A DNA stretch of 37,861 bases from a virus, in the IMG/VR virus record IMGVR_UViG_3300032325_000004, positions 1 through 37,861 of that record; one strand, given 5' to 3'. This document shows positions 1-37,861 of the stretch, piece by piece. Under the pieces are notes generated by a model. It saw nothing but the letters and a program-made list of their open reading frames with translations. It did not search any database and was not told the DNA's origin. The translations under genes and the position numbers were made by a program. Numbering within the stretch: position 1 is the first letter of the stretch; every line of letters begins with the position of its first letter.

Positions 1-123
1 AGAATATCAGATTGATAAATTCTCAACAATGAATGAGCATGAAAAAACAAAAGCATTAGAAGAAAACAATAATTTGCGCGACAGAGCAATTCAACAGGCA
101 AAAGAAGCGTTAGACATTACTCG
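1..123. repeat. Terminal direct repeat, left copy (circular-assembly overlap)
   Basis: The first 123 bases are identical to the last 123 bases (37739-37861). The repeat lies inside the tape-measure reading frame and joining the two ends restores one continuous frame, so it is most simply the overlap left when a circular or circularly permuted genome was assembled. The unique circle is then about 37,738 bp. Confidence 0.95.
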
Positions 124-757
124 CCAATCACGCGAAGGCACAATGGCAGATGGTTTTACAAAAGGCTTTGACGAATTTGTGCGCGATATGCCAACCCGCA
201 TGGAAATGGGTAAGACTGCTTTTAACTCATTGATGAACAGTATGGATAGTGCTTTGCGGCGGTTTGTGCAAACTGGCAAAATAAACTTTAAAGATTTAGT
301 CAGAAGCATGATTCAAGAATTGATATATCTTGAGTCAAAAGCAAAAATGATGGATATGTTTAAGTCGCTAAAAGGCGATGGCGGTGGCGGCGGCATTATG
401 GATATGCTTGGTAGTTTGTTTGGCGGTGGCGGTGGCGGTATGGGTGGACCCGCTAATTTTGACCCATTTGGTTTAGTGGGTTTTGCTAATGGTGGTAGCC
501 CTCCTGTTGGTCAAGCGTCTATTGTTGGTGAACGTGGACCCGAATTATTTGTACCGCGCACGGCTGGAACAATCATTCCAAACAATCAGCTTGCAAGTGC
601 GATGGGTGGCGGTCAAACCATTAACTACAATGGACCATATATTGCAAGCATGAACGCCATTGATACACAAAGCGGCACACAGTTTTTGGCAAAGAATAAG
701 AACACAATTTGGGCGGCTTATCAATCAGCCAACCGAGGCGTTCCAGTTTCAAGATAA
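2..757 (+). CDS. Tape measure protein, C-terminal part (continues from 36372-37861)
   Basis: This is the 3' portion of the tail tape-measure gene, which sets tail length and is threaded through the tail tube. The frame is open from base 2 and is continuous with the frame starting at 36372 when the ends are joined, giving about 707 residues in total. An ATG at 29 is internal, not a start. The visible part has a charged helical stretch, then a glycine-rich linker (GGGGG and GGGGGG runs) and a closing segment with FANGGSPPVGQASIVGERGPE, the typical ending of lambda-type tape-measure C-terminal domains. A stop at 755-757 is followed 9 bases later by the next tail gene. Confidence 0.9.
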   Translation, partial: EYQIDKFSTMNEHEKTKALEENNNLRDRAIQQAKEALDITRQSREGTMADGFTKGFDEFVRDMPTRMEMGKTAFNSLMNSMDSALRRFVQTGKINFKDLVRSMIQELIYLESKAKMMDMFKSLKGDGGGGGIMDMLGSLFGGGGGGMGGPANFDPFGLVGFANGGSPPVGQASIVGERGPELFVPRTAGTIIPNNQLASAMGGGQTINYNGPYIASMNAIDTQSGTQFLAKNKNTIWAAYQSANRGVPVSR

Positions 758-766
758 GGAAGAATC

Positions 767-1498
767 ATGGCAGTCCCAAATACATTTGCAACTGATACAG
801 GCTCAATCCCTTTAGCTGACCTTGATGCTAACTTTAGTTATTACGATGCGGCTTTTTCTATCAGCGGCGCAAACATAACCTATTTGGGAACAACGACTGC
901 TGGTAACTTAGCATTTACTTGGAACATGACAAGTGCTAACTGGTTGGTGGGTAACGCACAATCAACTGGCACGATTACTTTTGGCGGTACTGCTGGCACA
1001 GGGGCAATGACCTTTGGTCGTTCTACAGGCGCACAAACGCTTAACTTTGGCACAGGCGCAACGACAAACGGCACAACAAAAGCAATTAACATTGGCACGG
1101 CTGGCGTATCAGGCTCAATCACAACCATCAACATTGGTTCTTCTGTCACTGGTGCAACTGGAATCACAAACATTAATTCACAAGAAACAACAGTAAATGG
1201 TTTTACCGCAAGCGCACCTAAAACTGTTAATGCGGCAACTTACCAGCATTTAATAACTGATTACAGCCTGATTGTGACTACGACAGCGCCAACGATTACA
1301 TTGCTGGCGGCGGCTAGTTACACAGGCAAAGTTTTGTTTATTAAGAACATTACCGCCACCGCAGTTGTTAGCGCATCTGCCAATGTTGTGCCACTTAGTT
1401 CAGCTACCGCAGGAACAGCAATTCTTCCTGCTACTAATGGTAAATTTGCAATGCTTCAATCAGACGGAACAAATTGGGTAACCATGATGGCTAACTAA
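767..1498 (+). CDS. Beta-rich tail-associated protein (unknown)
   Basis: A 243-residue protein between the tape measure and the tail-tip genes. It is made largely of Gly/Thr/Ala/Asn with repeated short motifs such as INIG, TFGG and MTFG (about residues 65-150), which suggests a beta-helix or beta-prism like those in fibres and tip adhesins. No signal peptide or membrane segment is seen. AGGA at 758-761 precedes the ATG at 767 with good spacing. Position points to a virion protein of the distal tail; the exact role is not recognisable from sequence. A fibre or fibre-accessory role is an inference. Confidence 0.6.
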   Translation: MAVPNTFATDTGSIPLADLDANFSYYDAAFSISGANITYLGTTTAGNLAFTWNMTSANWLVGNAQSTGTITFGGTAGTGAMTFGRSTGAQTLNFGTGATTNGTTKAINIGTAGVSGSITTINIGSSVTGATGITNINSQETTVNGFTASAPKTVNAATYQHLITDYSLIVTTTAPTITLLAAASYTGKVLFIKNITATAVVSASANVVPLSSATAGTAILPATNGKFAMLQSDGTNWVTMMAN

Positions 1499-1499
1499 C

Positions 1500-2180
1500 A
1501 TGAGTCTACAAACCATACTTTCTGTCGCTGAATCGGTCAGCATAAACGACCACAAGTTTGCAGGACAAATGCTGTCTCGCAATATGAAGATAAGCACATC
1601 TGAAATATTGACTGTTCAGCCATTTATGTTCACCATTAAACCGATGAACTATTTGCAGTACAGCACCAATCGGGATGTGCTTTCTGACTTGCGTGTAGCT
1701 GACCGAATCACAGAACAATATTTAAATTTTGGCTCTACTGGTTGGCTTAACTACATTAAGTATCAAGGCGATATGTCAGGCGTACAAGCGGCGGCTTGCC
1801 AAGTGCAAACATCTAGCGCCAACAAAACTATTGTGCTTGGTTCTTTGCCATCTATTGCATCAGGTTTGTTTATTGTTAAAGCTGGTGACTTTATACAAAT
1901 TGACCGCTATGCTTATATTGCTACGGCTGATGTTCAACGCGGCGGCGGCGCAACTGTTAACATTCCTGTACATCGTTCTTTGATGACTACAGTTAGCGTG
2001 GCTACGGCGGCTGTAATAGGGCAATTTGGCACAACAGTTAGCTTGGGTGGGTCAACCTATACAGGCACAACTTTCCCTGTTGTAATGCGTGACTACCCGA
2101 CATATACGCTTGTGCCAATGACCAATGATTCTTGGATTTCATGGGATGGTGCATTTAGCGCAATTGAGGTTGTTATATGA
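1500..2180 (+). CDS. Distal tail / minor tail protein (putative)
   Basis: 226 residues, starting 1 base after the previous stop and overlapping the next gene by 4 bases (ATGA), so it is translationally coupled inside the tail operon. It occupies the slot where lambda-like and GTA-like phages place the distal tail protein between tape measure and hub. It contains mixed beta-type sequence with a central segment beginning KAGDFIQIDRYAYIATADV that looks like a beta-sandwich insert. I do not recognise a specific family; the call rests on gene order (tape measure, this protein, DUF2163-like, hub). Confidence 0.55.
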   Translation: MSLQTILSVAESVSINDHKFAGQMLSRNMKISTSEILTVQPFMFTIKPMNYLQYSTNRDVLSDLRVADRITEQYLNFGSTGWLNYIKYQGDMSGVQAAACQVQTSSANKTIVLGSLPSIASGLFIVKAGDFIQIDRYAYIATADVQRGGGATVNIPVHRSLMTTVSVATAAVIGQFGTTVSLGGSTYTGTTFPVVMRDYPTYTLVPMTNDSWISWDGAFSAIEVVI

Positions 2181-2854
2181 ACCCAATAGCACCAGTTGAA
2201 AATACTAACGTAATTCGTTATGCGGATTTTGTACGCATTACAACTGGCTCTGCTGTCTACCTTTTTTCCACAGCACCTTACGACATTACTGTGCCAAGCA
2301 TTGATGCCTCGCCTTTTACAGGGTTAAGTCAGCTTGTAAAAGTAGGCTCTGCACAGCGAGACATTAAAAGCACAGCTAACGAAACCACAGTCACATTAGT
2401 TGGCATTGATACAGCTAACCTTGCATTGGTGCTTGGCGCAGACATTAAAGGTTCGCAAGTTGAAATGTGGCACGGCTTTTTTGATGCAAACAATGAACTA
2501 ATTACAAGTTCAAGTGTGGAGTGGGTTAACAACATTAACTTGGAAATACCTTGGACAAACACTACAGGCGACATTGTTGAATGGACAAGTTCAACAAGCG
2601 GGTCGGGTTTGTATCAATTTTTTAATGGTTACATAAATTCATTCAGCATTAGCGAACAATACATGGAAGAAGTGCGCGGCTATTTGGGAATCGTAACCAT
2701 TAGCGCATCAAGCATCCAGCTAATCTTGCAAAACAGAACAGCAGGCAGATACACAAACAATCCATCATGGACTTTTTGGAATGCTTTAGATAACAGCATG
2801 AACAGGGTTAACTACATACAGACAATTAACTATCAATTTGGAAAAACAAATTAG
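2177..2854 (+). CDS. Tail tip protein, DUF2163-like
   Basis: 225 residues. It resembles the first domain of the DUF2163/BR0599 tail-tip family: an N-terminal beta region describing a field-like DFVRITTG stretch, a middle segment KGSQVEMWHGFFDANNELI, and a C-terminal segment with ILQNRTAGRYTNNPS that matches the conserved R.AGR element of that family. These proteins sit between distal tail protein and central hub and help form the tail tip. GAGG at 2165-2168 is the ribosome binding site; the start overlaps the upstream stop as ATGA. Family assignment is from memory of the motif and gene order. Confidence 0.6.
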   Translation: MNPIAPVENTNVIRYADFVRITTGSAVYLFSTAPYDITVPSIDASPFTGLSQLVKVGSAQRDIKSTANETTVTLVGIDTANLALVLGADIKGSQVEMWHGFFDANNELITSSSVEWVNNINLEIPWTNTTGDIVEWTSSTSGSGLYQFFNGYINSFSISEQYMEEVRGYLGIVTISASSIQLILQNRTAGRYTNNPSWTFWNALDNSMNRVNYIQTINYQFGKTN

Positions 2855-2864
2855 GATGGACTAC

Positions 2865-3311
2865 ATGATAAGACAGGCAAACAAATTTGATATTGAGGCA
2901 ATTGTTCGAATGCTTAAAAGCTATCGTGAACAAGCGCCAACGCAGTTTCTTAAAGACGCAAACAGCCGCGAGCATATAGACAAAATGCTAGGCAATATCT
3001 TGGCTGGCGCAGGCTTTATATTAATTGCTGAAAAAGATGACGAAACAGTTGGAATGGTCATTGCCGCACAACACCCAAACATTTGGAATCCTGCGATAAG
3101 CCAAGTCAGCGAGATTGCTTTTTGGTTAGATGAAGCGCACCGAGGTGGCAAGCTGGCGCATCGGCTTTTGCATGGCTACATTCAGCAATGTGAAGAATGG
3201 AAGCAAGAAAACCGCATTCAATTTTTTGCAATCAGTAAAATGGTAAACAGTCCCGACTTGTCATATGAAAAGTTCGGTTTTGAAAAGTTAGAAGAAACTT
3301 GGATTAAGTAA
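2865..3311 (+). CDS. GNAT-family N-acetyltransferase in tail module
   Basis: 148 residues from the ATG at 2865, chosen because AGGA (2853-2856) is 8 bases upstream and the product begins MIRQANKFDIEAI, the usual beta1-alpha1 start of GNAT enzymes. An in-frame ATG at 2856 is possible. The central strand FILIAEKDDETVGMVIA, then VSEIAFWLDEAHRGGKLAHRL, give a GNAT core with an acetyl-CoA-binding turn (R.GGKLA), and the end YEKFGFEKLEETWIK is the classic C-terminal GNAT motif. It would transfer an acyl group from acyl-CoA to an amine; the substrate is unknown. It lies between two tail-tip genes. Confidence 0.8.
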   Translation: MIRQANKFDIEAIVRMLKSYREQAPTQFLKDANSREHIDKMLGNILAGAGFILIAEKDDETVGMVIAAQHPNIWNPAISQVSEIAFWLDEAHRGGKLAHRLLHGYIQQCEEWKQENRIQFFAISKMVNSPDLSYEKFGFEKLEETWIK

Positions 3312-3313
3312 CC

Positions 3314-7622: not shown

Positions 7623-7624
7623 AT

Positions 7625-8740
7625 ATGTGCGACAAACTCAGCCAATTTGCAATAGAAAAATATGTTCACCTAAAAGATTTTCTTGCAAAGGAATCTTGCG
7701 CTGAGTTAACCGCAGTATTGCAAAACCTTGTTGCCCAACAAAAGACAACACAAGACACGCAATGTCCAAAGTCCCAAGCCGTACATGGTGCAATGGCTTT
7801 TGACAAATTGCTGGTTGACCTTTTGCCGCACTTTGAAAAAGCATCAGGCAAACGCTTGTATCCTACTTACTCATACGCAAGGCTATATGCCCCACATGAG
7901 GTTTTAGAGTGCCATACAGACCGCGAAAGCTGTGAGATAAGCGCCACTATTACCCTTGGCTTTGAGGGCGGCGTATGGGGCATTTACATGGGCGATGAGG
8001 GCAAGCAGAACGCTAACCGCATTGATATGGCTGTAGGCGATGCTGTGCTTTACAAGGGCATGGACAAGCATCATTGGCGTGAAGAATACACCGAGGGCAA
8101 ATGGCAAGCCCAAGTATTCTTGCATTATGTAGATGCTGATGGCAAACACGCTGATTGGAAATTTGACAAGCGACCAGCACTTAACTTGCCACCGCCTGAA
8201 GAATTAAGGCATTGGGTTTACAGCGACATACTGACAAGCGATGCTTGTGATTCGTTAATCAGGCTTTACACCAAGGATGAGATACCCAAAGAGCAACCTT
8301 TTATTGGTGGCGATGCTGGAACAATTAACTTAGAAATAAGAAATGTTAAGCGGGTTATGTTGCCAACATACAAAGATATTGGCGGCAGGCTTGCGGCGGC
8401 AGGCTTGGCGGCTAACCATCAAGCGTGGAAGTTTGACATTACCCATGCCAATCAAGCAGAATTCCTTGCTTACCCTGCTGGTGGTCGGTATCAAGCCCAT
8501 GTAGACACCTTTTTACAGCATGGCGATGAGTGTCGAAAGTTGACTGTATTAGCTTTTCTGAACGATAATTTTGCGGGTGGAAAGTTCTTTTTGCAGAATG
8601 GGCAAGATAAATACTATCCACCACAAAGCAAAGGAACTGTGCTTGTGTTCCCATCGTTCATCATGCACGGCGTAGAGGATGTGCTTGAGGGCGAAAGATA
8701 CAGCGTAGTTTGTTGGATGGTCGGCAAATTCTTTAGGTAA
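7625..8740 (+). CDS. Tandem-domain 2-oxoglutarate/Fe(II) dioxygenase
   Basis: 371 residues with two dioxygenase-like catalytic halves. The N-terminal half has HTD at residues 97-99 and a distal His in KHHWREEY (H150), in a GDAVLYKG context. The C-terminal half has HVD at 292-294, distal H348 in MHGVEDV, and R358 ten residues later (2-oxoglutarate contact), as in prolyl-4-hydroxylase-like enzymes. Each half therefore keeps an Fe(II)-binding HxD...H set. GGAG at 7616-7619 precedes the start. Such enzymes hydroxylate proteins, nucleotides or small molecules; the substrate here is unknown. It sits between tail fibre and lysis genes. Confidence 0.85.
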   Translation: MCDKLSQFAIEKYVHLKDFLAKESCAELTAVLQNLVAQQKTTQDTQCPKSQAVHGAMAFDKLLVDLLPHFEKASGKRLYPTYSYARLYAPHEVLECHTDRESCEISATITLGFEGGVWGIYMGDEGKQNANRIDMAVGDAVLYKGMDKHHWREEYTEGKWQAQVFLHYVDADGKHADWKFDKRPALNLPPPEELRHWVYSDILTSDACDSLIRLYTKDEIPKEQPFIGGDAGTINLEIRNVKRVMLPTYKDIGGRLAAAGLAANHQAWKFDITHANQAEFLAYPAGGRYQAHVDTFLQHGDECRKLTVLAFLNDNFAGGKFFLQNGQDKYYPPQSKGTVLVFPSFIMHGVEDVLEGERYSVVCWMVGKFFR

Positions 8741-9595: not shown

Positions 9596-10561
9596 ATGTC
9601 AGGAAAACCTGTTTACAGCGATGCGGAATTCATTGAACTTTGGAAAACGCATGAATCAGGCTCTGCAATGGCGAAAGCCCTTGGCATGGATTTGCGTAAC
9701 ATTCTCAGGCGAAAAAATAACTTAGAAGCTAGATACGAGATTTCATTACCTACAAAATCAAATGTCGTAAAGATGGTCACCAAGCCCAATAATTCAGCTA
9801 GAAAAGAATTGGGAATTGAGGATGGCGTTGTACTTTGTTTCTCAGACGCACACTTTTGGCCCGGCATTCACACTACGGCATACAAAGGGCTTCTTTGGGC
9901 GATTCGTGAGTTCCAGCCAAAGGCGGTCATAAATGGGGGTGATGCCTTTGATGGCGCTAGTATTTCCCGGTATCCCCGCATTGGGTGGGATTCAACACCA
10001 TCGGTAATTCAAGAATTAAAAGCCTGTGAGATTGCTTTAGGCGAAATTGAAGAAACAGCTAAAAAAGCACGACACAATGTAAATTTAGTGTGGGCGCTTG
10101 GAAATCATGATGCTCGCTACGAAAACCGTTTAGCCGCAAATGCACCGCAATACGAATATGTAAAAGGTTTTTCCCTAAAAGACCATTTTCCTGCATGGCA
10201 TCCTTGCTGGTCTTGCTGGCTCACCGATGATGTAGTTGTCAAGCATAGGTGGAAAGGGGGAATCCATGCCACACATGGGAATACCTCAATGTCGGGCAAA
10301 ACAATGGTCACTGGGCACTTGCACAGCTTAAAGGTAACGCCATATTCAGATTACAACGGCACTAGGTATGGCGTAGATACTGGCACATTAGCAGATACAG
10401 ATGGACCGCAATTTATAAATTACCTAGAGGATTCACCAACCAATTGGCGGTCAGGCTTTGCTGTTTTAACTTTTCACAAAGGTCGGCTTTTGTTCCCCGA
10501 ACTAGCGCAAAAATGGAATGAAAACGAAATTGAATTTCGCGGAAAAATATATGAGGTTTGA
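9596..10561 (+). CDS. Calcineurin-like metallophosphoesterase with N-terminal HTH
   Basis: 321 residues. An N-terminal helix-turn-helix-like region (about 8-45, including SGSAMAKALGMDLRNILRRKN) precedes a complete metallophosphoesterase core: FSDAHFWP (DxH), NGGDAFDG, GNHDAR, HATHGN and VTGHLHS (GHxH). All metal-ligand motifs are present. Such phage enzymes hydrolyse phosphomono- or diesters, including nucleic-acid ends or cyclic nucleotides; the substrate is not evident. GGAG (9586-9589) precedes the start, partly inside a CAACT/AGTTG inverted repeat. It overlaps the next gene by 11 bases. Confidence 0.85.
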   Translation: MSGKPVYSDAEFIELWKTHESGSAMAKALGMDLRNILRRKNNLEARYEISLPTKSNVVKMVTKPNNSARKELGIEDGVVLCFSDAHFWPGIHTTAYKGLLWAIREFQPKAVINGGDAFDGASISRYPRIGWDSTPSVIQELKACEIALGEIEETAKKARHNVNLVWALGNHDARYENRLAANAPQYEYVKGFSLKDHFPAWHPCWSCWLTDDVVVKHRWKGGIHATHGNTSMSGKTMVTGHLHSLKVTPYSDYNGTRYGVDTGTLADTDGPQFINYLEDSPTNWRSGFAVLTFHKGRLLFPELAQKWNENEIEFRGKIYEV

Positions 10562-19157: not shown

Positions 19158-19706
19158 ATGACAGCACAAATCAAAATAGTTTACAAAAAAACTGCCGATT
19201 TAATTCCATACGCAAGAAACAGTAGAACGCATGATGAGGGGCAAATAGCCCAAATTGCCGCATCAATAAAAGAATTTGGATTTACAAATCCAATCTTAAT
19301 TGACGGAACAAACGGCATTATTGCTGGACATGGGCGCGTAATGGCGGCACAAAAACTTGGCGAAGAAAAAGTGCCAACCATTGAATTAAGTCACTTAACT
19401 GAAGGACAAAAACGAGCATACATAATTGCCGACAACAAATTGGCTTTGAATGCTGGTTGGGATATGGAAGTTTTAAAGTTTGAAATTTCGGAATTAAAGC
19501 CTGCTGAATTAGCGTTAACAGGATTTTCGGTTGGAGAATTAAAGAGTTGGTTTGGTGATGAGGAAAATGAAAGTTCAGATGCAGAAGAAATGGATTTGAA
19601 TGTTGGCTACGAAATCATTGTTGAATGCGATTCGGAATATGAACAACGGAAATTATTGGAAAAGTTAACTGAAGAAGGTTATAAATGCAAATCAATGCTA
19701 CGCTGA
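19158..19706 (+). CDS. ParB/Srx-fold nuclease-like protein
   Basis: 182 residues. DLIPYARNSRTHDEGQIAQIAASIKEFGFTNPILID and GIIAGHGRVMAAQKLGEEKVP are the hallmark motifs of the ParB/sulfiredoxin fold (nucleotide-binding GHGR), spanning residues 11-80. No methylase domain follows; instead there is an acidic linker and a C-terminal domain YEIIVECDSEYEQRKLLEKLTEEGYKC. In mobile elements such domains act as CTP/ATP-dependent DNA binders or nucleases. It overlaps the ABC-GNAT gene by 22 bases, so the two are likely co-translated. Confidence 0.8.
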   Translation: MTAQIKIVYKKTADLIPYARNSRTHDEGQIAQIAASIKEFGFTNPILIDGTNGIIAGHGRVMAAQKLGEEKVPTIELSHLTEGQKRAYIIADNKLALNAGWDMEVLKFEISELKPAELALTGFSVGELKSWFGDEENESSDAEEMDLNVGYEIIVECDSEYEQRKLLEKLTEEGYKCKSMLR

Positions 19707-20824
19707 AATCAAAGATAGTTCGCCAATCTCCAATAATTAGAACTGGTCGGGTTTTACAACTGGAGGGAATGTTTGACGTATCGCCAGCAGATACAAGCAA
19801 GTTAACTTGGGATGTTAGTTTGCCATTGCATGAGCATGATTGGAATGTTGGCTTAATAGTTGGACCATCAGGCTGTGGAAAATCAACGATTGCCAAAGAA
19901 TTGTTTGCCGATTCTTATGTGCATGGCTTTCAATGGGATGATTCCAAAGCATTGATTGATGGATTCCCTGACCACTTAAGCGTTAAGGATATTACTTTGA
20001 TGCTATCAAGCGTTGGATTTAGTTCACCGCCAAGTTGGTTAAGACCATTTGGAGTTTTGTCAAATGGTGAACAATTTAGAGCAACAATAGCAAGAGCATT
20101 GGTAGAAAAACCCGATTTGTGTGTAATTGATGAATTTACATCGGTGATTGATAGAACTGTTGCAAAGATTGGTTCAACAGCTATTGCCAAAACTGTAAGA
20201 CGCAACAAAGGAAAATTTATAGCCGTTAGCTGTCACTATGACATAGAGGAATGGTTAGACCCTGATTGGATTTATGAGCCTGCATTAAATAAATTTCAAT
20301 GGAGGTTGGTTCGGCGGCGACCACCAATCACAATCCAAATCTGTCGTATCCCGCATCAAACTTGGCAGTTATTTTCAAAGCATCACTATTTAACGGCATC
20401 ATTAAATCATTCTGCTGTTTGTTTTGGTGCGTTTGTTGATGGTCAACTTGTTGCCTTTGATGCTTGGTTGCCATTCGTTGGAAAACTTGCACATGGCAAA
20501 GCAAGGAGAGGTCATCGCACAGTTTGTTTGCCCGACTTCCAAGGCGTAGGAATAGGAAATGCTTTGTTTGAAAGAGTCGCATCAATGTGGCGAGGATTAG
20601 GATATCGTGCATTCTCAGGAACTGGGCATCCTGCGGAAATTGCAAAACGAATCAAATCACCAAATTGGAAAATGACAAAAGCACCAGCAAGACACGCCAA
20701 AGGCAATCACAATGTTGACAAGACAAGAGCAACAAACAGAATGGTTGCATCTTTTGAACATATTGGCAAACCAATGGATAGAACTGAAGCGCAAAAAATG
20801 CACGAATCATGGGCAAGCATATAA
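19685..20824 (+). CDS. ABC ATPase fused to GNAT acetyltransferase (COG2401-like)
   Basis: 379 residues in two parts. Residues about 20-205 are a soluble ABC ATPase: Walker A GPSGCGKST (60-68), signature LSNGEQFRATIARAL (125-139), Walker B LCVIDE (145-150) and the switch H184. There are no membrane helices, so it is not a transporter. Residues about 212-379 form a GNAT domain with acyl-CoA site QGVGIG (286-291) after RTVCLPDF. This architecture matches the COG2401 group (ABC ATPase fused to predicted acetyltransferase). The substrate is unknown; nucleic-acid or protein acylation driven by ATP is an inference. AAGG precedes the start. Confidence 0.85.
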   Translation: MQINATLKSKIVRQSPIIRTGRVLQLEGMFDVSPADTSKLTWDVSLPLHEHDWNVGLIVGPSGCGKSTIAKELFADSYVHGFQWDDSKALIDGFPDHLSVKDITLMLSSVGFSSPPSWLRPFGVLSNGEQFRATIARALVEKPDLCVIDEFTSVIDRTVAKIGSTAIAKTVRRNKGKFIAVSCHYDIEEWLDPDWIYEPALNKFQWRLVRRRPPITIQICRIPHQTWQLFSKHHYLTASLNHSAVCFGAFVDGQLVAFDAWLPFVGKLAHGKARRGHRTVCLPDFQGVGIGNALFERVASMWRGLGYRAFSGTGHPAEIAKRIKSPNWKMTKAPARHAKGNHNVDKTRATNRMVASFEHIGKPMDRTEAQKMHESWASI

Positions 20825-21210: not shown

Positions 21211-21654
21211 ATGCCATATGCACCATTCAACAAGGTATGCAGGGAACTAGGATGCAAGAACACAAGAAGCAAACTTAACAGCTTTTGTTTAGAACATGGT
21301 GGCTTGCAACACGCTAACGAGGGCAAGGATAACGCATATAGCAATCCAGCTTGGCGCACGATAAGACGCGCACAGTTAAGCAAACAACCCTTGTGTCAGT
21401 CCTGCTTAACGCAAGGGCATATAGCACCAGCATTGCACGTTGACCATGTATTCCCTTGGCGACAGATAAGCGAGCAAGCATTCTTGCATAACATCTTCCA
21501 AAGCCTGTGCCATGAATGCCATAGTCACAAGACCGCACAAGAGCGTAAAGGCATCTTTGAGCATTACACCCAAGACGGAATAAAAAACCTCACTAAAGGC
21601 GACTACAGCTATTCCATGAGCCAATTCCACGGCGGCAAAAGTTTAGAAACTTAA
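21211..21654 (+). CDS. HNH endonuclease
   Basis: 147 residues. CQSCLTQG, then ALHVDHVFPWRQISEQAFLHNIFQSLCHECHSHKT form a zinc-supported HNH site: C62/C65 and C100/C103 for structure, DH (78-79), N94 and H105 for catalysis. HNH proteins immediately before the terminase genes are common in HK97-like phages and are needed for cos cleavage in several of them. Gap of 3 bases from the preceding gene. Confidence 0.9.
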   Translation: MPYAPFNKVCRELGCKNTRSKLNSFCLEHGGLQHANEGKDNAYSNPAWRTIRRAQLSKQPLCQSCLTQGHIAPALHVDHVFPWRQISEQAFLHNIFQSLCHECHSHKTAQERKGIFEHYTQDGIKNLTKGDYSYSMSQFHGGKSLET

Positions 21655-21775: not shown

Positions 21776-22234
21776 ATGACCAACCGATTACCCCCCGAAT
21801 TGCATTTAGTTCATGGCACAAAGCAAGGTCACGCAGGCGGCACTTTGCCTGAAAAGTTACGCGCAAGAGTTCCAAAGGCTGAATGGCTGGACAACCCTGA
21901 CGCATGGGACAGGGACAAATTTATCCAAGAAACCTCCGACTTTCTTTGGGAAACCTATGGGATTGGAAGCAATCAAGACAAGCACGTTTTGGCGGCACTT
22001 GCCAATCAGATGGACATTTACATTAAGTGTATGAAAGGCGTAGCCAAGGGCGGCATCATTACGCAATTTAACGCTGGTCAAACAGTCGGACCAAATCCCT
22101 TTTTGACTGCTGGCGACAAAGCATTAAGCCGTGCGGTTGCATTGATGAATGAACTGGGCTTAACACCGCGAGGTCGCTTGGCTACAAATAAAACCGAGGG
22201 CGGCAAATACAGCAAGCTACTAAACGGACCATGA
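21776..22234 (+). CDS. terS: Terminase small subunit, P27 family
   Basis: 152 residues. The C-terminal segment TVGPNPFLTAGDKALSRAVALMNELGLTPRGR is the conserved core of the P27 small-terminase family. The N-terminal PELHLVHGTKQGHAG is also typical. It recognises the phage genome and hands it to the large subunit for packaging. The repeats just upstream may be its target. Overlaps the large terminase start by 4 bases. Confidence 0.9.
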   Translation: MTNRLPPELHLVHGTKQGHAGGTLPEKLRARVPKAEWLDNPDAWDRDKFIQETSDFLWETYGIGSNQDKHVLAALANQMDIYIKCMKGVAKGGIITQFNAGQTVGPNPFLTAGDKALSRAVALMNELGLTPRGRLATNKTEGGKYSKLLNGP

Positions 22235-23892
22235 CCTACGAAGATGGCATCCTGTATGCGGTGCGTGTGGCAAAGGGAGAGTTAACAGTTAGCCGTAATG
22301 TGCGGCTTGCTTGTCAACGCTTTTTAAATCAGCTTGAAGAAAGAGCATGGGGTTATGAATTCCATGTTGACTATGTAACGCATTTCCTTGAGTTTGCCAA
22401 AACGCTTGTTCACACAAAAGGACCTGACGCTGGCAAGCCATTGATGCTTGAGCCATTCCAAATATTTATCATTTGCGCCATCTACGGATTCAGAAGCAAA
22501 AAAGATGTGAGCAAGCGCATGGTCACGGATGTAATTGTGTTTATTCCGCGCAAAGCGGGTAAGTCAACGCTGACCGCTGTTATTGCGTTATACGAACTAA
22601 AGTGGGGTGAAGCTGGCGCAGAGGTTTACACCTTGGCGACCACACGCGAACAAGCAAGCATTGTTTTTGATGCCGCTAAAGGTTTTGTGGAAAATATGCC
22701 ACACGATGTAGCACAACTTTTTATTGTGCATCGCAACCAAATTACTGTTGCTGGCGACAGTCAAACAAAGTTTAAAGCGTTAAGCAGAGACACAAAAAAG
22801 ACAGGCGATGGCATGAACCCATCTTGCGCCATCATTGATGAGGCGGCGCAAATTGTGGACAGAAACGCAATTGAAGTGTTGCATTCAGGCATGGTGGCAC
22901 GGCAAAACCCTTTGCGTATCTACATAACAACGGCATCCTTTACCAAGGAAACCAAGTTTTATGAAGATATGCAGATGCTGGAAAATATGCTTAACGGCGA
23001 AGCAGAAGACAATCCAAGATGGTTTGGTTTGCTGTACAGCTTAGACCCACAAGACGATTGGCGAGACCCTAAGATATGGGCTAAAGCTAATCCTATGCAC
23101 GGCATCAGCGTGTATGAAGATGCAATAGCGGAAAGAGCAGAACAGGCAAAGCATAAGCCAGCGGCGCTAAATGAATTTCTATGCAAAACACTTAACATTT
23201 ATGTTAGCGCAAACTCTGCTTGGCTTGACCGCGCATATTGGGATGATGACAAGGCATTTATAAAAACACAACGAGAACCCGAAGCGGTTTTTATAGGCTT
23301 TGACTTGGCGGCTACGCGAGATTTAAATGCAGTTTGTACGCTGAAACGCTTTGCGGAAAATGACTTTGAAGCAGAGTTCAAATTCTTTTTGCCCGAAGAA
23401 GGCTTGGCACTTGTGCCTAAACATTACAGCGATATTTTTCGCGTAGCTGTTAACTCAGGCATCTTACATATTACCGAGGGCAACGTAATGGATGACCGCG
23501 AGATAAGCGACTACATCATTGGGCAAGCCCAAAAATATGACGTTAAGGAAATTGGCTTTGATGCCTACAATGCCGCAAGTTTGGTTGCACGATTGCACGA
23601 AGCTGGCTTGCCTGTTAAGAAAGTTGGGCAAGGCATGGCGGTGTTAAGTAATCCAAGCAAGCAAGTTGAAAAGTTAATTATGAATTACGGCATCAAGCAT
23701 GATGGCAACCCATTTGTGGGATGGCAACTTGGCAACTGTGAGGTTTATGTAGATGTAAATGGAAATGTAAAAGTTCGTAAAAATGAAAATGACAAAAGTG
23801 CAAAAGTTGATGGCATAATCGCACTTATCATCGCTACGCATTGTTCTTTGGACAACCCGACAATGAGTGGCTTTGGTTTCCGAACTTTCTAA
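22231..23892 (+). CDS. terL: Terminase large subunit, HK97-like
   Basis: 553 residues. ATPase domain: Walker A-like IPRKAGKST (105-113), Walker B CAIIDE (199-204), and coupling motif ITTAS. Nuclease domain: GFDLAATRD with D358, then EIGFDAYNA and a terminal DGIIALIIA supplying further acidic residues. It translocates DNA into the prohead and cuts it. The best ORF for phylogenetic placement of this phage. Confidence 0.95.
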   Translation: MTYEDGILYAVRVAKGELTVSRNVRLACQRFLNQLEERAWGYEFHVDYVTHFLEFAKTLVHTKGPDAGKPLMLEPFQIFIICAIYGFRSKKDVSKRMVTDVIVFIPRKAGKSTLTAVIALYELKWGEAGAEVYTLATTREQASIVFDAAKGFVENMPHDVAQLFIVHRNQITVAGDSQTKFKALSRDTKKTGDGMNPSCAIIDEAAQIVDRNAIEVLHSGMVARQNPLRIYITTASFTKETKFYEDMQMLENMLNGEAEDNPRWFGLLYSLDPQDDWRDPKIWAKANPMHGISVYEDAIAERAEQAKHKPAALNEFLCKTLNIYVSANSAWLDRAYWDDDKAFIKTQREPEAVFIGFDLAATRDLNAVCTLKRFAENDFEAEFKFFLPEEGLALVPKHYSDIFRVAVNSGILHITEGNVMDDREISDYIIGQAQKYDVKEIGFDAYNAASLVARLHEAGLPVKKVGQGMAVLSNPSKQVEKLIMNYGIKHDGNPFVGWQLGNCEVYVDVNGNVKVRKNENDKSAKVDGIIALIIATHCSLDNPTMSGFGFRTF

Positions 23893-29583: not shown

Positions 29584-30933
29584 ATGTCAAAAGAAATCCT
29601 TGAAAAGCTGGATGCTATCGAAGCTAAACAAGCCGAAGCAGTATCAGCAGTAGAAGCAAAAATTCCCGAAGCCATTGCCGCTGTGCAAGCTGACGTAGCC
29701 GAAAAGCTGTCCGCTTTTGAAGCTAAATTAGCATCTGTTCAAGCGCCTGCAATCATTCGCGCACCCCACAAAACTGTGCGTGGTGATGTGAACCGCGCTG
29801 TGCGTGAGCAAATTTCCGCTTATTACAAAGGTGGTCGCCAAGGCGAAAAAGAACTGAAGATGTTTGAAGACGCTGGTCAATACGATGCGTATTTGCAAGA
29901 AGCATCTGCGCTGACTGCTGGCGGTAACAATCAGGGTGGTCGTACAGGCTACGACCCTGTGTTTGTTGCTCTGCGTTTGGCTAACCCTATGCGCGGTGTT
30001 TCTCGCACAGTTGCAACCGATGGTTCTTCTTATCAATTCCGAGTCAAGACTGGCAACGCTGGCGCGGCTTGGGGATACACCATCCAAAACAACGGCGCGG
30101 CAACAACTGAAGATACTTCAATTTGGCAATTAGTTTTGCAAGATTTGAACGTGCAATTCCCCATCCGTACAGCCGCATTGGATGACATTGATGGTTTGGA
30201 AGGCAATGTTGTTGATGATATGTTGGCAGAATTTGCACAAAGCGAAGCCTTGTCAATGGTTCAGAACAATGACCAAGCCGCACAATCAGCATCTAACCCC
30301 TATGGCGGTACAAACGGCTTGCGTGGTCTTGACCAATACGCTGGCGCAAATGCTACCTACACAGGCGGCACAGCATCAACAGCGGCATATGGCACAAGTG
30401 GTACAGGCTCAACAACTGGCTTGCACAGCTTGGCGACCTATGACCAATTAACTTCAAACGTCAATACTGTTGGCTTGAACAATATTGCATACAAAGATGT
30501 GATTAACTTCATGTATTCTTTGCCACAGCAATATTGGACAGCAAACGCTAAGTTCATGGTCAATCCAATTTTGGCTCAAGCTATTCGTGGCTTGCAAGAT
30601 ACCAATGGTCGCCCAATCTTCAACTCTGTTGAATCTTTGAACCCTGATGGCATCATCGGTCAAATGTTGGGCTTTGATGTGGTTATCAATAAGTATCTTG
30701 ATAACCCATTCCAAGGAACTGCTGGCGCGGCTGGCACTAACAGCTTGTACCCAATGTACTTTGCTGACTGGTCACGTTTCCACACAATCGTTGACCGCTT
30801 GAACATGGTCATGCGCCGCTATGACCAAACAGCGCCCGGCTTCATAACTTTTTATGGAGAAAAAAGACTTTGCACCAGTGTGCGTGATCCCAATGCTGGT
30901 GTTCGTTATCGTTCTACTGGCACTTCAACCTAA
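29584..30933 (+). CDS. Major capsid protein 1 (HK97 fold, with scaffold domain)
   Basis: 449 residues. Residues about 1-60 form an Ala/Glu/Lys-rich coiled coil (LDAIEAKQAEAVSAVEAKIPE), the delta/scaffold domain removed by the protease. The HK97-fold core begins near SALTAGGNNQGGRTGYDPVF and includes LRLANPMRGVSRTV, QFPIRTAALDDI and closing PGFITFYGEKRLCTSVRDPNAG. It is followed by a strong terminator and then a second capsid paralogue. AAGG precedes the start. Confidence 0.9.
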   Translation: MSKEILEKLDAIEAKQAEAVSAVEAKIPEAIAAVQADVAEKLSAFEAKLASVQAPAIIRAPHKTVRGDVNRAVREQISAYYKGGRQGEKELKMFEDAGQYDAYLQEASALTAGGNNQGGRTGYDPVFVALRLANPMRGVSRTVATDGSSYQFRVKTGNAGAAWGYTIQNNGAATTEDTSIWQLVLQDLNVQFPIRTAALDDIDGLEGNVVDDMLAEFAQSEALSMVQNNDQAAQSASNPYGGTNGLRGLDQYAGANATYTGGTASTAAYGTSGTGSTTGLHSLATYDQLTSNVNTVGLNNIAYKDVINFMYSLPQQYWTANAKFMVNPILAQAIRGLQDTNGRPIFNSVESLNPDGIIGQMLGFDVVINKYLDNPFQGTAGAAGTNSLYPMYFADWSRFHTIVDRLNMVMRRYDQTAPGFITFYGEKRLCTSVRDPNAGVRYRSTGTST

Positions 30934-30944
30934 TTGTTGCCCTT

Positions 30945-30977
30945 GGGTGGAGGCGTAAAAAACCTCCACCTTTTTTT
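30945..30977 (+). terminator. Strong terminator between the two capsid genes
   Basis: GGTGGAGG (30946-30953) pairs perfectly with CCTCCACC (30963-30970) around a CGTAAAAAA loop and is followed by seven T (30971-30977). This is a textbook Rho-independent terminator after capsid gene 1. The downstream capsid 2 and all tail genes must be transcribed by read-through, antitermination or a promoter that I could not identify. Confidence 0.9.
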
Positions 30978-31000
30978 AGCAACCTTTTTTGGAAAACAAA

Positions 31001-32035
31001 ATGAGCATCACCGAACGAATCCTTACTGGTATAAAGCAAACAATCGAAACAGGCGATAAAGTCAAGATTGACTTGCGTGAAGCGTCTGCACTTACAGGGT
31101 CAGGAATTAATATCGGTGGTCGCACTTTATTTGATGATGCGTTTGCCGCTTTGCGTTTTGCTAACCCATTGCGCCAAGTTGCAAGACAAGTTGTCCGAAG
31201 CGGTCAAAGCGCGGTGCAGTTTGTTGCAAAAACTGGTAACGCAACTACACAAGCAAACCCTTGGGGATACACATTTACGCCTGATAGCGGAACACCCAAT
31301 ACAAACACTTCTATTTGGCAAATACCAACTCGCGTGATTACAGCGCAAATTCCAATTCGTTCTGCTGTTTTATCTGACGTAAATTATTTAGATGAAACAT
31401 TGGTGCAGGACTTGTTCCAAGAATTTGGCACACAAGAAGCCAATTCAATGATTATCAATAATGACCAAGCAGGCTCTACAACCACCACAACTGGCGGCGT
31501 AGATGGTTTGCGTGGTTTGAATAGTTATACAACTGCGGTGGCTTCTGCTTATGGCACAAGCGGCACGGCAATCACAAATGGCATTCATAGCATTGCAACT
31601 GTTACACAAGCAACGGCGGCAATTAACTATGGGGCAATTACTGATATAGCACGTTTGTTTCCTGCTCAATATTGGAATTTGCCCGGCACAGCATGGATGA
31701 TGCACCCACAAACAATTCATGACTTGCGTAACCTTGGACCGGTTACAGCCGCAATCAGAGAATTTGCTGAAGTGGGCAGTAATGAGGGCGGTGCAATAAA
31801 AAATATTTTTGGCTTCCCTGTGATTGCAAATCCATATATGCAAACTGTTGGCGCTGGCAACTTCAGCGTGTACTTAGCAAACTGGACAAACTTTGTGACT
31901 ATTGCCGATGTGGAAGAAATGAATGTTCAAGCGTTTGAGCAAACCACTCCCGGCTTCATAACTCTGTACGCAGAGAAACGATTGGTTTCTACTGTGCGCG
32001 ACCCTTTTGCTGGCATTCGTTTGGTTGGTGTTTAA
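31001..32035 (+). CDS. Major capsid protein paralogue 2 (no scaffold domain)
   Basis: 344 residues from the ATG at 31001 (GGA 8 bases upstream). It is homologous to capsid 1 through the whole fold: SALTGSGINIGGRTLFDDAFAALRFANPLRQ, TSIWQIPTRVITAQIPIRSAVLSDV, SMIINNDQAGS and PGFITLYAEKRLVSTVRDPFAGIR; in that last block 19 of 27 aligned residues match capsid 1. It lacks the coiled-coil domain, having only about 25 residues before the fold. It may form pentons, decorate, or replace capsid 1 at special sites. Confidence 0.85.
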   Translation: MSITERILTGIKQTIETGDKVKIDLREASALTGSGINIGGRTLFDDAFAALRFANPLRQVARQVVRSGQSAVQFVAKTGNATTQANPWGYTFTPDSGTPNTNTSIWQIPTRVITAQIPIRSAVLSDVNYLDETLVQDLFQEFGTQEANSMIINNDQAGSTTTTTGGVDGLRGLNSYTTAVASAYGTSGTAITNGIHSIATVTQATAAINYGAITDIARLFPAQYWNLPGTAWMMHPQTIHDLRNLGPVTAAIREFAEVGSNEGGAIKNIFGFPVIANPYMQTVGAGNFSVYLANWTNFVTIADVEEMNVQAFEQTTPGFITLYAEKRLVSTVRDPFAGIRLVGV

Positions 32036-32037
32036 CC

Positions 32038-33470: not shown

Positions 33471-33503
33471 GACAAGTTCAGCAATCAATCGGAAGGAAAC
33501 AAA

Positions 33504-33998: not shown

Positions 33999-34013
33999 TC
34001 GGGAGATTTAAAG

Positions 34014-34532: not shown

Positions 34533-34735
34533 TGAAAGTAGCTGATGCTGTAGAAGTGTTGGCTACTACTTATCAATCCTTGGACTTAGTTGCCCAAGGT
34601 TTGACAGTAACAGCCACCGAAGTAGCAACGGCTCTTGCTAATGCAAAGCCTGATACAACAGAATTTGTTTGCTTAACAGTTCTTGCAAGATACAACCCTG
34701 TGGCGCAAGTCATAGAAGAACAAACGACAGAATAA
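34532..34735 (+). CDS. Small tail-region protein (unknown)
   Basis: 67 residues, TAATG overlap with tail tube 2. Ala/Thr/Val-rich helices (VADAVEVLATTYQSLDLVAQGLTV, TEVATALANA). Position is where small tail accessory or assembly proteins sit. No family recognised. Confidence 0.5.
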   Translation: MKVADAVEVLATTYQSLDLVAQGLTVTATEVATALANAKPDTTEFVCLTVLARYNPVAQVIEEQTTE

Positions 34736-34737
34736 AA

Positions 34738-34977
34738 ATGACCGACACGACAATACATAACACGCAAGATTTGTTAGGGTTCTTGGTAAGCCAAGCAGAA
34801 CACCGCAAGGATTGGTTTGGCTTTACTCAACAAAAGATGACTGCCGTTAGTCTCGCGCATGAGATTGCGGCGCGTCATGCTGACACGATGACACCTGACC
34901 AAGTGGTTGAGTACGCAAAAGAATTAAACGAGTTGCTGTTTCACCGATTGGTCAAGCCCGGCGCATGGAGAATCTGA
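34738..34977 (+). CDS. Small tail-region helical protein (unknown)
   Basis: 79 residues from the ATG at 34738, 2 bases after the previous stop. Helical: LLGFLVSQAEHRKDWFGFTQQKMTAVSLAHEIA, YAKELNELLFHRLVKPGAW. No motif known to me; the next gene follows after 1 base. Confidence 0.55.
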   Translation: MTDTTIHNTQDLLGFLVSQAEHRKDWFGFTQQKMTAVSLAHEIAARHADTMTPDQVVEYAKELNELLFHRLVKPGAWRI

Positions 34978-34978
34978 A

Positions 34979-35527
34979 ATGGGTGTCACCATAAAGCTGG
35001 AAGGCATTGGCGATGTTGCGTTAGCTTTTGACCAATTAGCGGCAGAAATTGGCGACAAAAAAGCAACCAGCAAAGTGCTTGTGCCTGCTGTGCGTGAAGC
35101 AATAAAACCAGTTTTATCAGACGCACAAAGACGAGCGCCCGAAGATACTGGCGGCTTGCGTTTGTCTTTATTGGTTGAAGCGCGGCGACCAACCAAGCGA
35201 GATAGGCGAAGCAAATACATAACGCAAACTGATACTGTTATTGCATCTGTTACAACCGCATCAGGCAAAAAATTAGCGGCAATGAGTGAGGGCAAAGGTT
35301 TGTTAAGGGCAAGAAAGCGTTTAATCAAAATGGGCGCAACCGCAGAACAAGCAGAAGCATTTAAGGGAATTGAAAGCGATGCTCGCGCAATGTCACAAGA
35401 ATTTGGTTCTGCAAGGAATCCACCTCATCCATATTTGCGACCAGCATTAGAAAGTAGCGCACAAGAAACTGTTAACAGACTTGGGCAAATTTTGGCAAGA
35501 AGAATACAAACATTTAAGAGGACATGA
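34979..35527 (+). CDS. HK97 gp10-like tail completion protein
   Basis: 182 residues. GVTIKLEGIGDVALAFDQLAAEIGDKKATSKVLVPAVREAIKPV and QRRAPEDTGGLRLSL are conserved features of the HK97 gp10 family (tail completion / neck). A central linker rich in Lys/Arg precedes HPYLRPALESS, the usual closing motif. In many phages this gene precedes the tail tube; here it follows, an order variation. Confidence 0.8.
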   Translation: MGVTIKLEGIGDVALAFDQLAAEIGDKKATSKVLVPAVREAIKPVLSDAQRRAPEDTGGLRLSLLVEARRPTKRDRRSKYITQTDTVIASVTTASGKKLAAMSEGKGLLRARKRLIKMGATAEQAEAFKGIESDARAMSQEFGSARNPPHPYLRPALESSAQETVNRLGQILARRIQTFKRT

Positions 35528-35528
35528 C

Positions 35529-36017
35529 ATGACACGATTTGCAGATGCCTTTGGCAAGAAGTACGAAGAAAACAAAGAGAAAATTTTCACCCGCAAATTT
35601 GAATTAGGCGGTCACATCTTTAGAGTGCGTGTGCCGTATGTGCATGAGTCAGATGAGATTTACAAGCGCATCCAAGAGCCAAGCCCCGAAGCCATAGAAA
35701 AAGAATACAAGACCATCACAGACCCATTGATGGAGTTTAAAGACAATCCTGCTAATGAAAGCGTTTTTGTCTTTACTGAAGATGATGTAATTGTTGAAAG
35801 TCGTTCTTTGCGTGAGTCTGCCAAGACTAAAGTGCAAACGCAAATAAAAATTACAGAGTTTTTTAAGTTGTTAATTCCTGAAGTGCCTGACCATTCATTA
35901 GCCGACTTAACATATGAGGAAATTGAAGCAGAATTTCCCATGTCGGTGCAAAGCCAAATGATTGAAAAGATTGTTGAAGCAATCAGCCCGACATACAAGG
36001 AAGCAAGGGGAAACTAA
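35529..36017 (+). CDS. Tail assembly chaperone G
   Basis: 162 residues from the ATG at 35529 (AGGA 6 bases upstream; an ATG at 35524 stops at once). Acidic helical protein: FGKKYEENKEKIFTRKFELGGHIFRVRVPYVHESDE and ITEFFKLLIPEVPDHSLADLTYEEIEAEF. It occupies the lambda gpG position before the tape measure and ends right after a -1 slippery heptamer, so it is made alone or as the longer GT fusion. Confidence 0.8.
   Translation: MTRFADAFGKKYEENKEKIFTRKFELGGHIFRVRVPYVHESDEIYKRIQEPSPEAIEKEYKTITDPLMEFKDNPANESVFVFTEDDVIVESRSLRESAKTKVQTQIKITEFFKLLIPEVPDHSLADLTYEEIEAEFPMSVQSQMIEKIVEAISPTYKEARGN
36008..36014 (+). other. Programmed -1 frameshift site G GGA AAC
   Basis: In the G reading frame the bases fall as G GGA AAC, a canonical X XXY YYZ heptamer, with the TAA stop in the next codon (36015-36017). 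A -1 slip here (tRNAs re-pairing on GGG and AAA) moves the ribosome into the frame that runs open to 36379. This is the lambda G/GT arrangement. Confidence 0.9.
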
Positions 36018-36379
36018 TTGGCTCATTGAAAACGCAAGTCATCACCGCGATGATTTTCAATGGGCATACACATGACACGATAGCGGAGTTGGATGACATA
36101 ACAATGGGGAATTTGCAGACCATGTACGCTGACGGACTGATTGGAAATTATGGCTTGCTTAACACGCTTGGAAGTCTTACCAATGGCGTGTTTAACTACA
36201 TTAGGGCATCGGGTTCTGCCGCTTATAAACTAGCCAACATTCTCGGTAATGCGTATGATTACATCTACCCGCCATTGACTGAAGAACAAGTTAAACAGCA
36301 AGTTAACGAGCAATTGCTTGCGTTCATGAGTCAAGCGCCGGGCTTTTCCGCAGACCGATTTGGGGTAAAAAATGGCTAA
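36014..36379 (+). CDS. GT extension (T domain), made by -1 frameshift
   Basis: 121 codons before the stop, read as a fusion to G giving a GT protein of about 283 residues. It has no convincing own ribosome binding site; the apparent TTG at 36026 is not needed. AMIFNGHTHDTIAELDDITMGNLQTMYADGLIGN and LTEEQVKQQVNEQLLAFMSQ are helical. In lambda the T part recruits tail-tube subunits to the tape measure. Overlaps the tape-measure start by 8 bases. Confidence 0.8.
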   Translation, partial: LIGSLKTQVITAMIFNGHTHDTIAELDDITMGNLQTMYADGLIGNYGLLNTLGSLTNGVFNYIRASGSAAYKLANILGNAYDYIYPPLTEEQVKQQVNEQLLAFMSQAPGFSADRFGVKNG

Positions 36380-37861
36380 TATGCTTGGGCGGCTTGGTGT
36401 AGTTCTCGGACTTGATGCCGCTGAATTTGTTTCGGGCATACAAAAAGCAGAAAGAAATTTAAAGCAATTTGCGGAAGGTGCAATCCAGTACGGCAAGATT
36501 GGCGCGACTGCTCTAACTGCTATGTCCGTGGCGGCAATTAAATTTGCCGATGACATACAAGATGTAGCGCAGGCAAATGATGTTGCTATTGATACAGTTG
36601 TCAAATTACGTTCAGCTTTACAAGATAGTGGCGGCTCGGCAGAAAAAGCTGGCGTGATGCTGTCGGCATTTACAAAATTTATTGAAACAGCGGCAAGCGG
36701 TTCATTTGAGGCGCAAAAAGCATTAAGTTCTGTTGGTGTATCTTTTAGGGATATTGGCAGGTTATCGCAGGAAGAATTGCTAGGCAAAGCGTTAAAGGGT
36801 TTAGAAAGCATTGAAGACCCAATCACACGCAATGCAAGGGCGATGGATTTGTTTTCTAAAGCGGCAAAGGGTGTGGCGTTTGATTCGTTTGCACAGCAAA
36901 TGCAAAACACAAGCAAGACCACAAGAGAACAAGTGGAAGCTGTAAAAGCTGGCGCGGAAACTTGGGGTAACTTTGAAAAAATAATCCGCAAATTGCAACT
37001 TGCTTTTGTTGAAGCACTTGGTCCGAGCCTGAGTGCAATCAACAATCAAATGTCAGCAGAGGCATTCCCTAAACTAACAATGCTGAACAAGCTGTTTAAC
37101 TCTATTGCAAGCAACGCATTTAGCGCAGGACAAGCAATAGAGGCTTTGGGCAAAGGCTTTGAAAAGATTGCTGGCACTTCTTTAATCATGCAAACTTATG
37201 GCGAGTCTGCCGCTGGTTATGCAGAAGTAAAAAAATTAAATGAAGAATATGTAAGGTTTTTGGAAAACCAGCGGAAAGCACAAAAACAATTTGACAGCGA
37301 CCTAGAAGGTGGAAGGCGCGGCATCCGCACAGATGTATACCCTAAAGGCGGCAGACCAAAAGTTAGCGGGACAATTGTTCGACCAACAAAAATAGGCGTT
37401 GATACTGAGGCAGAAGCAGAAGCAAACAAGATACGAGAAGATTGGTACAAGCGAGTTAACAAAAGCATTGAGGAAGCACAAAAACTTTCTGAAGCAAATT
37501 ACAGATTAAGCCTTAAAGAACTTGATGTAGATATTAGCAGGCTTAAAACAGAAGAAGATTTGCAATTATTAAAAGACCAAACATATCAATCTATATTGCA
37601 AAGCAATAGGTTGCAAAGTCAGCAATTAGATTTTGAAAGAGCCAATCTTTTGTTAGTTACACAATTTACAGATTTGCGTTCCGAGGAAGTTAGATACGCA
37701 CAAGATGTAATGAGTATTCGTGCTAAATACGCAGAGCAAGAATATCAGATTGATAAATTCTCAACAATGAATGAGCATGAAAAAACAAAAGCATTAGAAG
37801 AAAACAATAATTTGCGCGACAGAGCAATTCAACAGGCAAAAGAAGCGTTAGACATTACTCG
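36372..37861 (+). CDS. Tape measure protein, N-terminal part (continues at 1-757)
   Basis: 496 complete codons to the end of the contig, in frame with 2-757 across the circular join; the whole protein is about 707 residues. GGGG 6 bases upstream of the ATG. The N-terminus MANMLGRLGVVLGLDAAEFVSGIQKAERNLKQF is typical; a short hydrophobic segment at about 40-60 and long coiled-coil-like helices follow (KTEEDLQLLKDQTYQSILQS). Length predicts a tail of roughly 100 nm using the usual 1.5 Angstrom per residue rule, an estimate only. Confidence 0.9.
   Translation, partial: MANMLGRLGVVLGLDAAEFVSGIQKAERNLKQFAEGAIQYGKIGATALTAMSVAAIKFADDIQDVAQANDVAIDTVVKLRSALQDSGGSAEKAGVMLSAFTKFIETAASGSFEAQKALSSVGVSFRDIGRLSQEELLGKALKGLESIEDPITRNARAMDLFSKAAKGVAFDSFAQQMQNTSKTTREQVEAVKAGAETWGNFEKIIRKLQLAFVEALGPSLSAINNQMSAEAFPKLTMLNKLFNSIASNAFSAGQAIEALGKGFEKIAGTSLIMQTYGESAAGYAEVKKLNEEYVRFLENQRKAQKQFDSDLEGGRRGIRTDVYPKGGRPKVSGTIVRPTKIGVDTEAEAEANKIREDWYKRVNKSIEEAQKLSEANYRLSLKELDVDISRLKTEEDLQLLKDQTYQSILQSNRLQSQQLDFERANLLLVTQFTDLRSEEVRYAQDVMSIRAKYAEQEYQIDKFSTMNEHEKTKALEENNNLRDRAIQQAKEALDIT
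37739..37861. repeat. Terminal direct repeat, right copy
   Basis: Identical to bases 1-123, see the left copy. Counted once, the genome is a circle of about 37,738 bp. Confidence 0.95.

What the first reader, a model, noticed from the sequence alone, without database searches (positions are those of the whole stretch)
1..37861. GATC is almost absent from the genome
Reading the whole plus strand (GATC is palindromic), I found only one GATC, at 30886-30889 in capsid gene 1. Chance alone predicts on the order of 130-150 sites in 37.7 kb. GAT is very common, so this is specific avoidance. It suggests long exposure to a GATC-cutting restriction enzyme, or avoidance of Dam-type marking and mismatch repair.
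Basis: partly seen in the sequence, partly recalled or inferred. Interest (0 to 1): 0.7.

Follow-up and report, generated by a model that had tools for sequence, protein, structure and literature searches.

The report
Phage genome stripped of restriction sites
This virus of bacteria has almost entirely erased not only GATC but about a dozen (up to 21) short DNA words, many of them cutting sites of bacterial restriction enzymes, largely by silent codon changes, and its relatives have each erased a different set.

Summary
In detail: GATC occurs once (30886-30889), against 141 expected from base composition, about 94 from a trinucleotide model, and 74±7 in coding sequence with proteins and codon usage held fixed. 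A greedy search finds 21 such words, against none in Markov-simulated genomes and 0-13 in 13 reference phages. Where amino acids are identical, the window keeps 4 of 173 GATC sites present in seven relatives, but 27-63% of control words: removal was largely silent. The erased set differs between relatives and turns over on their tree. Best explanation: selection by many Type II restriction enzymes of past and present hosts. Dam or mismatch-repair avoidance cannot explain the other words. The window is a complete 37.7-kb tailed phage related to Methylophilaceae phage P19250A. Its own host is unknown, so cognate enzymes are not shown. Restriction-site avoidance is a known strategy; the breadth and turnover here are unusual.

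The parts
1..37861 (.). whole phage genome, depleted of about 21 words along its whole length (unique length 37,738 bp)
   Evidence: sites are missing in all three thirds of the genome, including the early region
1..123 (+). terminal direct repeat, first copy (assembly-level sign of a complete, circular or terminally redundant genome)
37739..37861 (+). terminal direct repeat, second copy
30886..30889 (.). the only GATC, in codons GAT CCC (Asp-Pro) of capsid gene 1; the ten closest homologues have GAC CCN here
9858..9861 (.). the only GGCC
22231..23892 (+). terminase large subunit; marker used for relatives and tree
29584..30933 (+). major capsid protein 1, holds the single GATC

Best explanation
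The genome has been under long selection by many Type II restriction-modification systems of its hosts, so nearly every recognition site that would enter a cell unmethylated has been removed. Shown here: about 21 words are almost absent; the loss is not explained by protein sequence, codon usage or trinucleotide content; it happened largely through silent substitutions; the erased set differs between related phages and changes several times on their tree; erased words are enriched in known Type II specificities. Inferred: the agents are host restriction enzymes, and their number reflects a host population, or successive hosts, with a large and changing repertoire rather than one strain. No D12-type or N6/N4-type methyltransferase was found in the window, so site removal rather than self-methylation appears to be its main protection from restriction.
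For: GATC 1 vs 74, GGCC 1 vs 69, GCWGC 0 vs 73, CCWGG 0 vs 30, ACSGT 1 vs 40, CCAGA 0 vs 48 under a protein- and codon-usage-preserving null. 113 of 1870 hexamers absent vs 0.66 expected. 21 words found by greedy search, none in simulated genomes. One-base neighbours are in excess: GCSGC 139 vs 71, CCSGG 22 vs 10. Asp before C is GAT 1 / GAC 63, before G GAT 169 / GAC 34; in relatives that keep GATC, GAT before C is common. At identical amino acids 173 GATC of seven relatives -> 4 kept, 135 GGCC -> 0, 146 GCWGC -> 0, 117 ACSGT -> 0, while CATG 91/181, GATG 350/558 are kept. State changes on the TerL tree: GATC at least 5, GCWGC 4, ACGT 5. Degenerate hexamers picked are enriched in Type II prototypes, P 3e-9, prototype list from memory. 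Positive controls: the same method recovers GATC/CCWGG in T7 and GTYRAC, RGCGCY, CCGG and GGCC-type words in Haemophilus phage HP1. No D12 or N6/N4 methyltransferase. Published survey: orthodox Type II sites and non-temperate phages dominate site avoidance (PMC6286503).
Against: The host is not identified and no cognate enzyme or methylation is shown. Several of the 21 words (RAGCTY, ACSGT, GCRYGC, AGMKCT, TCYRGA, SCTNAGS, CCAGA, CCGGA, CGTCC) match no Type II prototype known to me. Twenty specificities is more than most single strains carry, so a pooled or historical host repertoire has to be assumed.
Confidence: 0.88

Rival explanations
1. GATC is avoided because of Dam-type marking: the phage escapes methyl-directed mismatch repair (MutH nicking) or other GATC-binding host proteins.
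For: GATC is among the three most strongly erased words; T7 shows a similar GATC deficit (6/137).
Against: GGCC, GCWGC, RCATGY, CCWGG, GGNNCC and others are erased equally. In relatives the avoidance can be flank-specific: G028 has GATC 134/173 but RGATCY 0/27, which MutH or SeqA would not produce. The avoided state is lost and gained between close relatives.
Confidence: 0.04
2. The words are missing for compositional, mutational or coding reasons unrelated to restriction (general palindrome avoidance, codon bias, polymerase context bias).
For: Some palindromes are mildly under-represented in many genomes; partial depletion is also seen for TCGA, AGCT and CCGG here.
Against: Trinucleotide, codon-shuffle and ortholog-position tests all reject it. 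Palindromes such as AATT, GANTC and CATG are normal. A mutational bias would not separate GCWGC from GCSGC or RCATGY from other CATG, and would not differ so sharply between close relatives.
Confidence: 0.04
3. The phage encodes site-specific nucleases that destroy host DNA, and its own genome lacks their sites for self-protection.
For: An HNH endonuclease gene lies at 21211-21654.
Against: It sits directly upstream of the terminase genes, where packaging-linked HNH proteins are common (own knowledge). One nuclease cannot account for about 20 unrelated words, and no restriction-enzyme family turned up among the genes scanned.
Confidence: 0.03

Closest known systems
Restriction-site avoidance in non-temperate dsDNA phages (survey by Rusinov et al. 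2018, PMC6286503)
   Same: Near-complete elimination (observed/expected under 0.1) of Type II recognition words; no integrase seen here.
   Different: In that survey hosts and enzymes were known and 3.9% of phage-site pairs were eliminated. Here about 21 words are missing at once and the host is unknown.
Coliphage T7 (GATC and CCWGG avoidance)
   Same: GATC 6/137 and CCWGG 2/82; both words are also erased in the window.
   Different: Seven words by the same search, not 21; unrelated phage and host.
Haemophilus phage HP1
   Same: Depleted of words matching Haemophilus enzymes: GTYRAC 0/21, CCGG 1/58, RGCGCY 2/26, AGGCC and GGCCAA.
   Different: Six words; temperate; unrelated.
Pelagibacter phage HTVC010P
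   Same: The highest of 13 yardstick phages, 13 erased words.
   Different: Unrelated; its 11-kb relatives have a median of one erased word against six in the window family.
Methylophilaceae phage P19250A (KX815270)
   Same: Nearest named relative found: TerL 71%, capsid 60%, 23 of 35 genes; avoids 14 words including GGCC 0/56 and GGNNCC-type words.
   Different: Keeps GATC (111/125) and GCWGC (51/63); avoids CTNAG, GTYRAC and ACGT, which the window does not.

Membership tests
Restriction-site avoidance by a phage | Recognition word at under 10% of expectation with adequate expected count | tested here: met
   GATC 1/97, GGCC 1/115, GCWGC 0/109 and others
Restriction-site avoidance by a phage | Not explained by protein sequence or codon usage | tested here: met
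   Codon shuffles; ortholog positions with identical amino acids
Restriction-site avoidance by a phage | Erased words are Type II specificities | tested here: met
   16 of 45 degenerate hexamers picked in the family are known prototypes vs 24 of 288 in the pool, P 3e-9, list from memory; about 11 of the window's 18 palindromes match a prototype known to me; some words match none
Restriction-site avoidance by a phage | Host encodes the cognate restriction-modification systems | not testable with these tools
   Host unknown; only two metagenome-bin contigs with a related TerL
Restriction-site avoidance by a phage | No self-methylation that would make avoidance unnecessary | tested here: inconclusive
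   No D12 or N6/N4 methyltransferase family match and no methyltransferase-like motif in the window's open frames; the C5 family model was not run on the window
Restriction-site avoidance by a phage | Lower sensitivity to restriction in infection | not testable with these tools
   needs phage or cloned fragments
Dam/MutH mark avoidance | Depletion confined to GATC (and Dcm sites), whatever the flanks | tested here: not met
   At least seven other unrelated words erased equally

The most novel reading that the evidence does not exclude
This phage lineage keeps a rolling portfolio of some 15-28 erased restriction words, so each genome is a readable record of the restriction repertoire of its uncultured hosts, including specificities not yet described (for example RAGCTY, ACSGT, CCAGA).
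Probability: 0.45. Interest if true: 0.7.

Novelty: new member of a known kind. Interest (0 to 1): 0.52.

Why it matters
Site avoidance is usually described one or two sites at a time. Here a whole genome lacks about 21 words (roughly 880 expected sites, about a dozen present), and relatives lack different sets, so such phages could serve as a record of which restriction systems their hosts have carried. That would allow restriction repertoires, and new specificities, to be predicted from phage genomes alone, and suggests hosts with unusually many, changing systems. The cultured pair P19250A and IMCC19250 could test the idea directly.

Tried and rejected
Dam/mismatch-repair avoidance and compositional artefacts were rejected. 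Host identification failed: no tRNA in the window; one TerL scan of the genome collection gave only two metagenome-bin contigs at 72% identity (an Alphaproteobacteria bin and a Holosporales bin), which may be binning errors; C5 methyltransferases in those bins were not informative. An attempt to reach Methylophilaceae genomes through a RuMP-pathway gene gave no clear candidate. No close phage by DNA. A first greedy search counted palindromes with one flanking letter twice and was redone. TGCGCA, found by the Markov null, is not counted as secure because the codon null expects only 5.7 in coding sequence.

Full report
What the window is. The first 123 bases recur exactly at the end, so the unique genome is 37,738 bp, 42.6% GC. 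It encodes terminase subunits, portal, head protease, two tandem capsid genes, tail genes, an endolysin, an Erf-like recombinase and a DUF932 protein. No integrase was seen among the genes scanned. The nearest named relative found is Methylophilaceae phage P19250A: TerL 71% and capsid 60% identical, 23 of 35 window genes shared. Ninety IMG/VR stretches encode a related TerL, of which 80 were kept; 29 of their contigs were read in full.

There is one GATC, at 30886. The expectation is 141 from base composition, 94-97 from a trinucleotide model and 74 +/- 7 in coding sequence with proteins and codon usage fixed.

It is not only GATC. Of 1870 hexamers with an expectation of at least 5, 113 are absent, where 0.66 absences are expected. 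A greedy search for palindromes and short asymmetric words with observed/expected of at most 0.1 gives 21 words: GGCC 1/115; GCWGC 0/109; GATC 1/97; RCATGY 0/70; GGNNCC 3/54; RAGCTY 1/46; CCWGG 0/41; GCRYGC 1/40; ACSGT 2/40; TGCGCA 0/27; RCCGGY 1/25; SCTNAGS 1/22; CGWCG 0/18; AGMKCT 1/19; TCYRGA 0/16; ATGCAT 1/18; YACGTR 0/14; GWGCWC 0/14; CCAGA 0/55; CCGGA 0/24; CGTCC 0/19. Six genomes simulated from trinucleotide models gave none. I regard GATC, GGCC, GCWGC, CCWGG, RCATGY, RAGCTY, GGNNCC, ACSGT and CCAGA as secure (5.5 s.d. or more under the codon null), RCCGGY, CGWCG, AGMKCT and CGTCC as likely (5.3-6.1 s.d.), and the rest as weaker (2.9-4.9 s.d.; TGCGCA weakest, 0 vs 5.7).

The recognition is enzyme-like. 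CATG is common (136) but RCATGY is absent. GCWGC is absent but GCSGC is in excess (139 vs 71 under codon shuffling); CCWGG is absent but CCSGG is in excess (22 vs 10). Degenerate hexamers picked in any family member are enriched in known Type II prototypes, 16 of 45 against 24 of the 288 in the pool, P 3e-9; the prototype list is from memory. To my knowledge the window's words include the specificities of HaeIII, TseI, DpnII/MboI, NspI, NlaIV, EcoRII, Cfr10I, Hpy99I, NsiI, BsaAI and HgiAI. Others (RAGCTY, ACSGT, CCAGA and more) match no prototype I know.

How it was done. In the window, Asp codons followed by C are GAT once and GAC 63 times; before G they are GAT 169 and GAC 34. In relatives that keep GATC, GAT before C is common (P19250A 28 to 14, G013 28 to 17). 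At aligned positions with identical amino acids, seven relatives (G013-G018, G029) together have 173 GATC, 135 GGCC, 146 GCWGC, 73 CCWGG, 75 GGNNCC and 117 ACSGT sites; the window keeps 4, 0, 0, 0, 0 and 0. Control words are kept at 27-63% (CATG 50%, GATG 63%, CTGA 27%). These counts pool related genomes, so they are not independent events. The single GATC lies in GAT CCC of the capsid gene, where the ten closest homologues have GAC CCN: it is one silent base from removal.

Family pattern. On a TerL tree of 31 phages the avoided/present state of GATC changes at least five times, RGCGCY and ACGT five, GCWGC, RAGCTY, CCAGA and CASTG four. G021 and G022 have 28 and 26 erased words, including asymmetric CCTTC and CCCGC; G010 has three, G013-G018 four to seven. 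In G028 GATC is near normal (134/173) but RGATCY is 0/27.

How unusual. The same search gives T7 7, lambda 2, KHP30 5, 1961P 6, sk1 6, HTVC010P 13, HP1 6 and six other phages 0-1. It recovers T7's GATC and CCWGG and HP1's GTYRAC, which serve as positive controls. In length-matched 11-kb pieces the window family has a median of six erased words (range 1-12, n=38), enteric Pm34-like phages zero (n=73), pelagiphages one (n=23), DSL-LC04-like phages one (n=28). These comparison sets are few and were chosen by me, so the rarity of such genomes in general is not established.

Mechanism. Shown: strong, word-specific, mostly silent removal that is lineage-specific and has changed repeatedly. Inferred: the agents are Type II restriction enzymes of past and present hosts. 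D12 and N6/N4 methyltransferase families are absent from the window; only G019 and G023 carry an N6/N4-type gene, so self-methylation is not the usual route in this family. Rusinov et al. (PMC6286503) report that orthodox Type II sites and non-temperate phages dominate such cases; both fit here.

Known or new. Restriction-site avoidance is an established strategy and this is a member of that kind, with one defining feature (cognate host enzymes) untestable here. What stands out is the number of words erased at once and their turnover between relatives.

Limits. The host is unknown; the two metagenome-bin contigs may be binning errors. Cognate enzymes, methylation and fitness effects are untested. 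The C5 methyltransferase model was not run on the window (only a motif scan).

Noticed in passing
window 29584-30933 and 30989-32035: Two adjacent genes both match the major-capsid family phrog_10, and relatives and P19250A show the same pair (about 40% cross-matches): a tandem capsid duplication or decoration/minor capsid pair.
   Followed up: partly
window, whole: TCGA (15 vs 67), AGCT (83 vs 141), GTAC (66 vs 98) and CCGG (23 vs 44) in coding sequence are partly depleted under the codon null, as if selection on them is recent, weak or fading; relatives G019-G022 have erased TCGA and AGCT altogether.
   Followed up: partly
window 7625-8740: Gene with a 2OG-Fe(II) oxygenase domain (PF13640) at its C-terminal end and matches to phage families labelled ferrochelatase; role unknown.
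   Followed up: no
window 19685-20824: 379-aa ATPase-like protein with ABC/AAA signatures and a very strong match to a family of unknown function, phrog_11143, next to a ParB-like gene at 19158-19706.
   Followed up: no
L153 (G019:33427-34068) and L154 (G023): Two relatives carry an N6/N4 methyltransferase gene whose protein begins with a ParB-like stretch, yet they still avoid many words.
   Followed up: no
L132, L133: Related phage contigs sit in two metagenome bins called Alphaproteobacteria and Holosporales; either a host hint or misbinning. L132 avoids 11 words.
   Followed up: partly
L138 and L139 (Helicobacter phages KHP30, 1961P): ACGT is 5/69 and 0/66 and TCGA-containing words are strongly depleted, while GATC did not come up as erased.
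   Followed up: no
L083 (P19250A): CTNAG is 3 against 122 expected, with GGCC 0/56, GTYRAC 0/23 and ACGT 0/20: a testable prediction for its cultured host.
   Followed up: no
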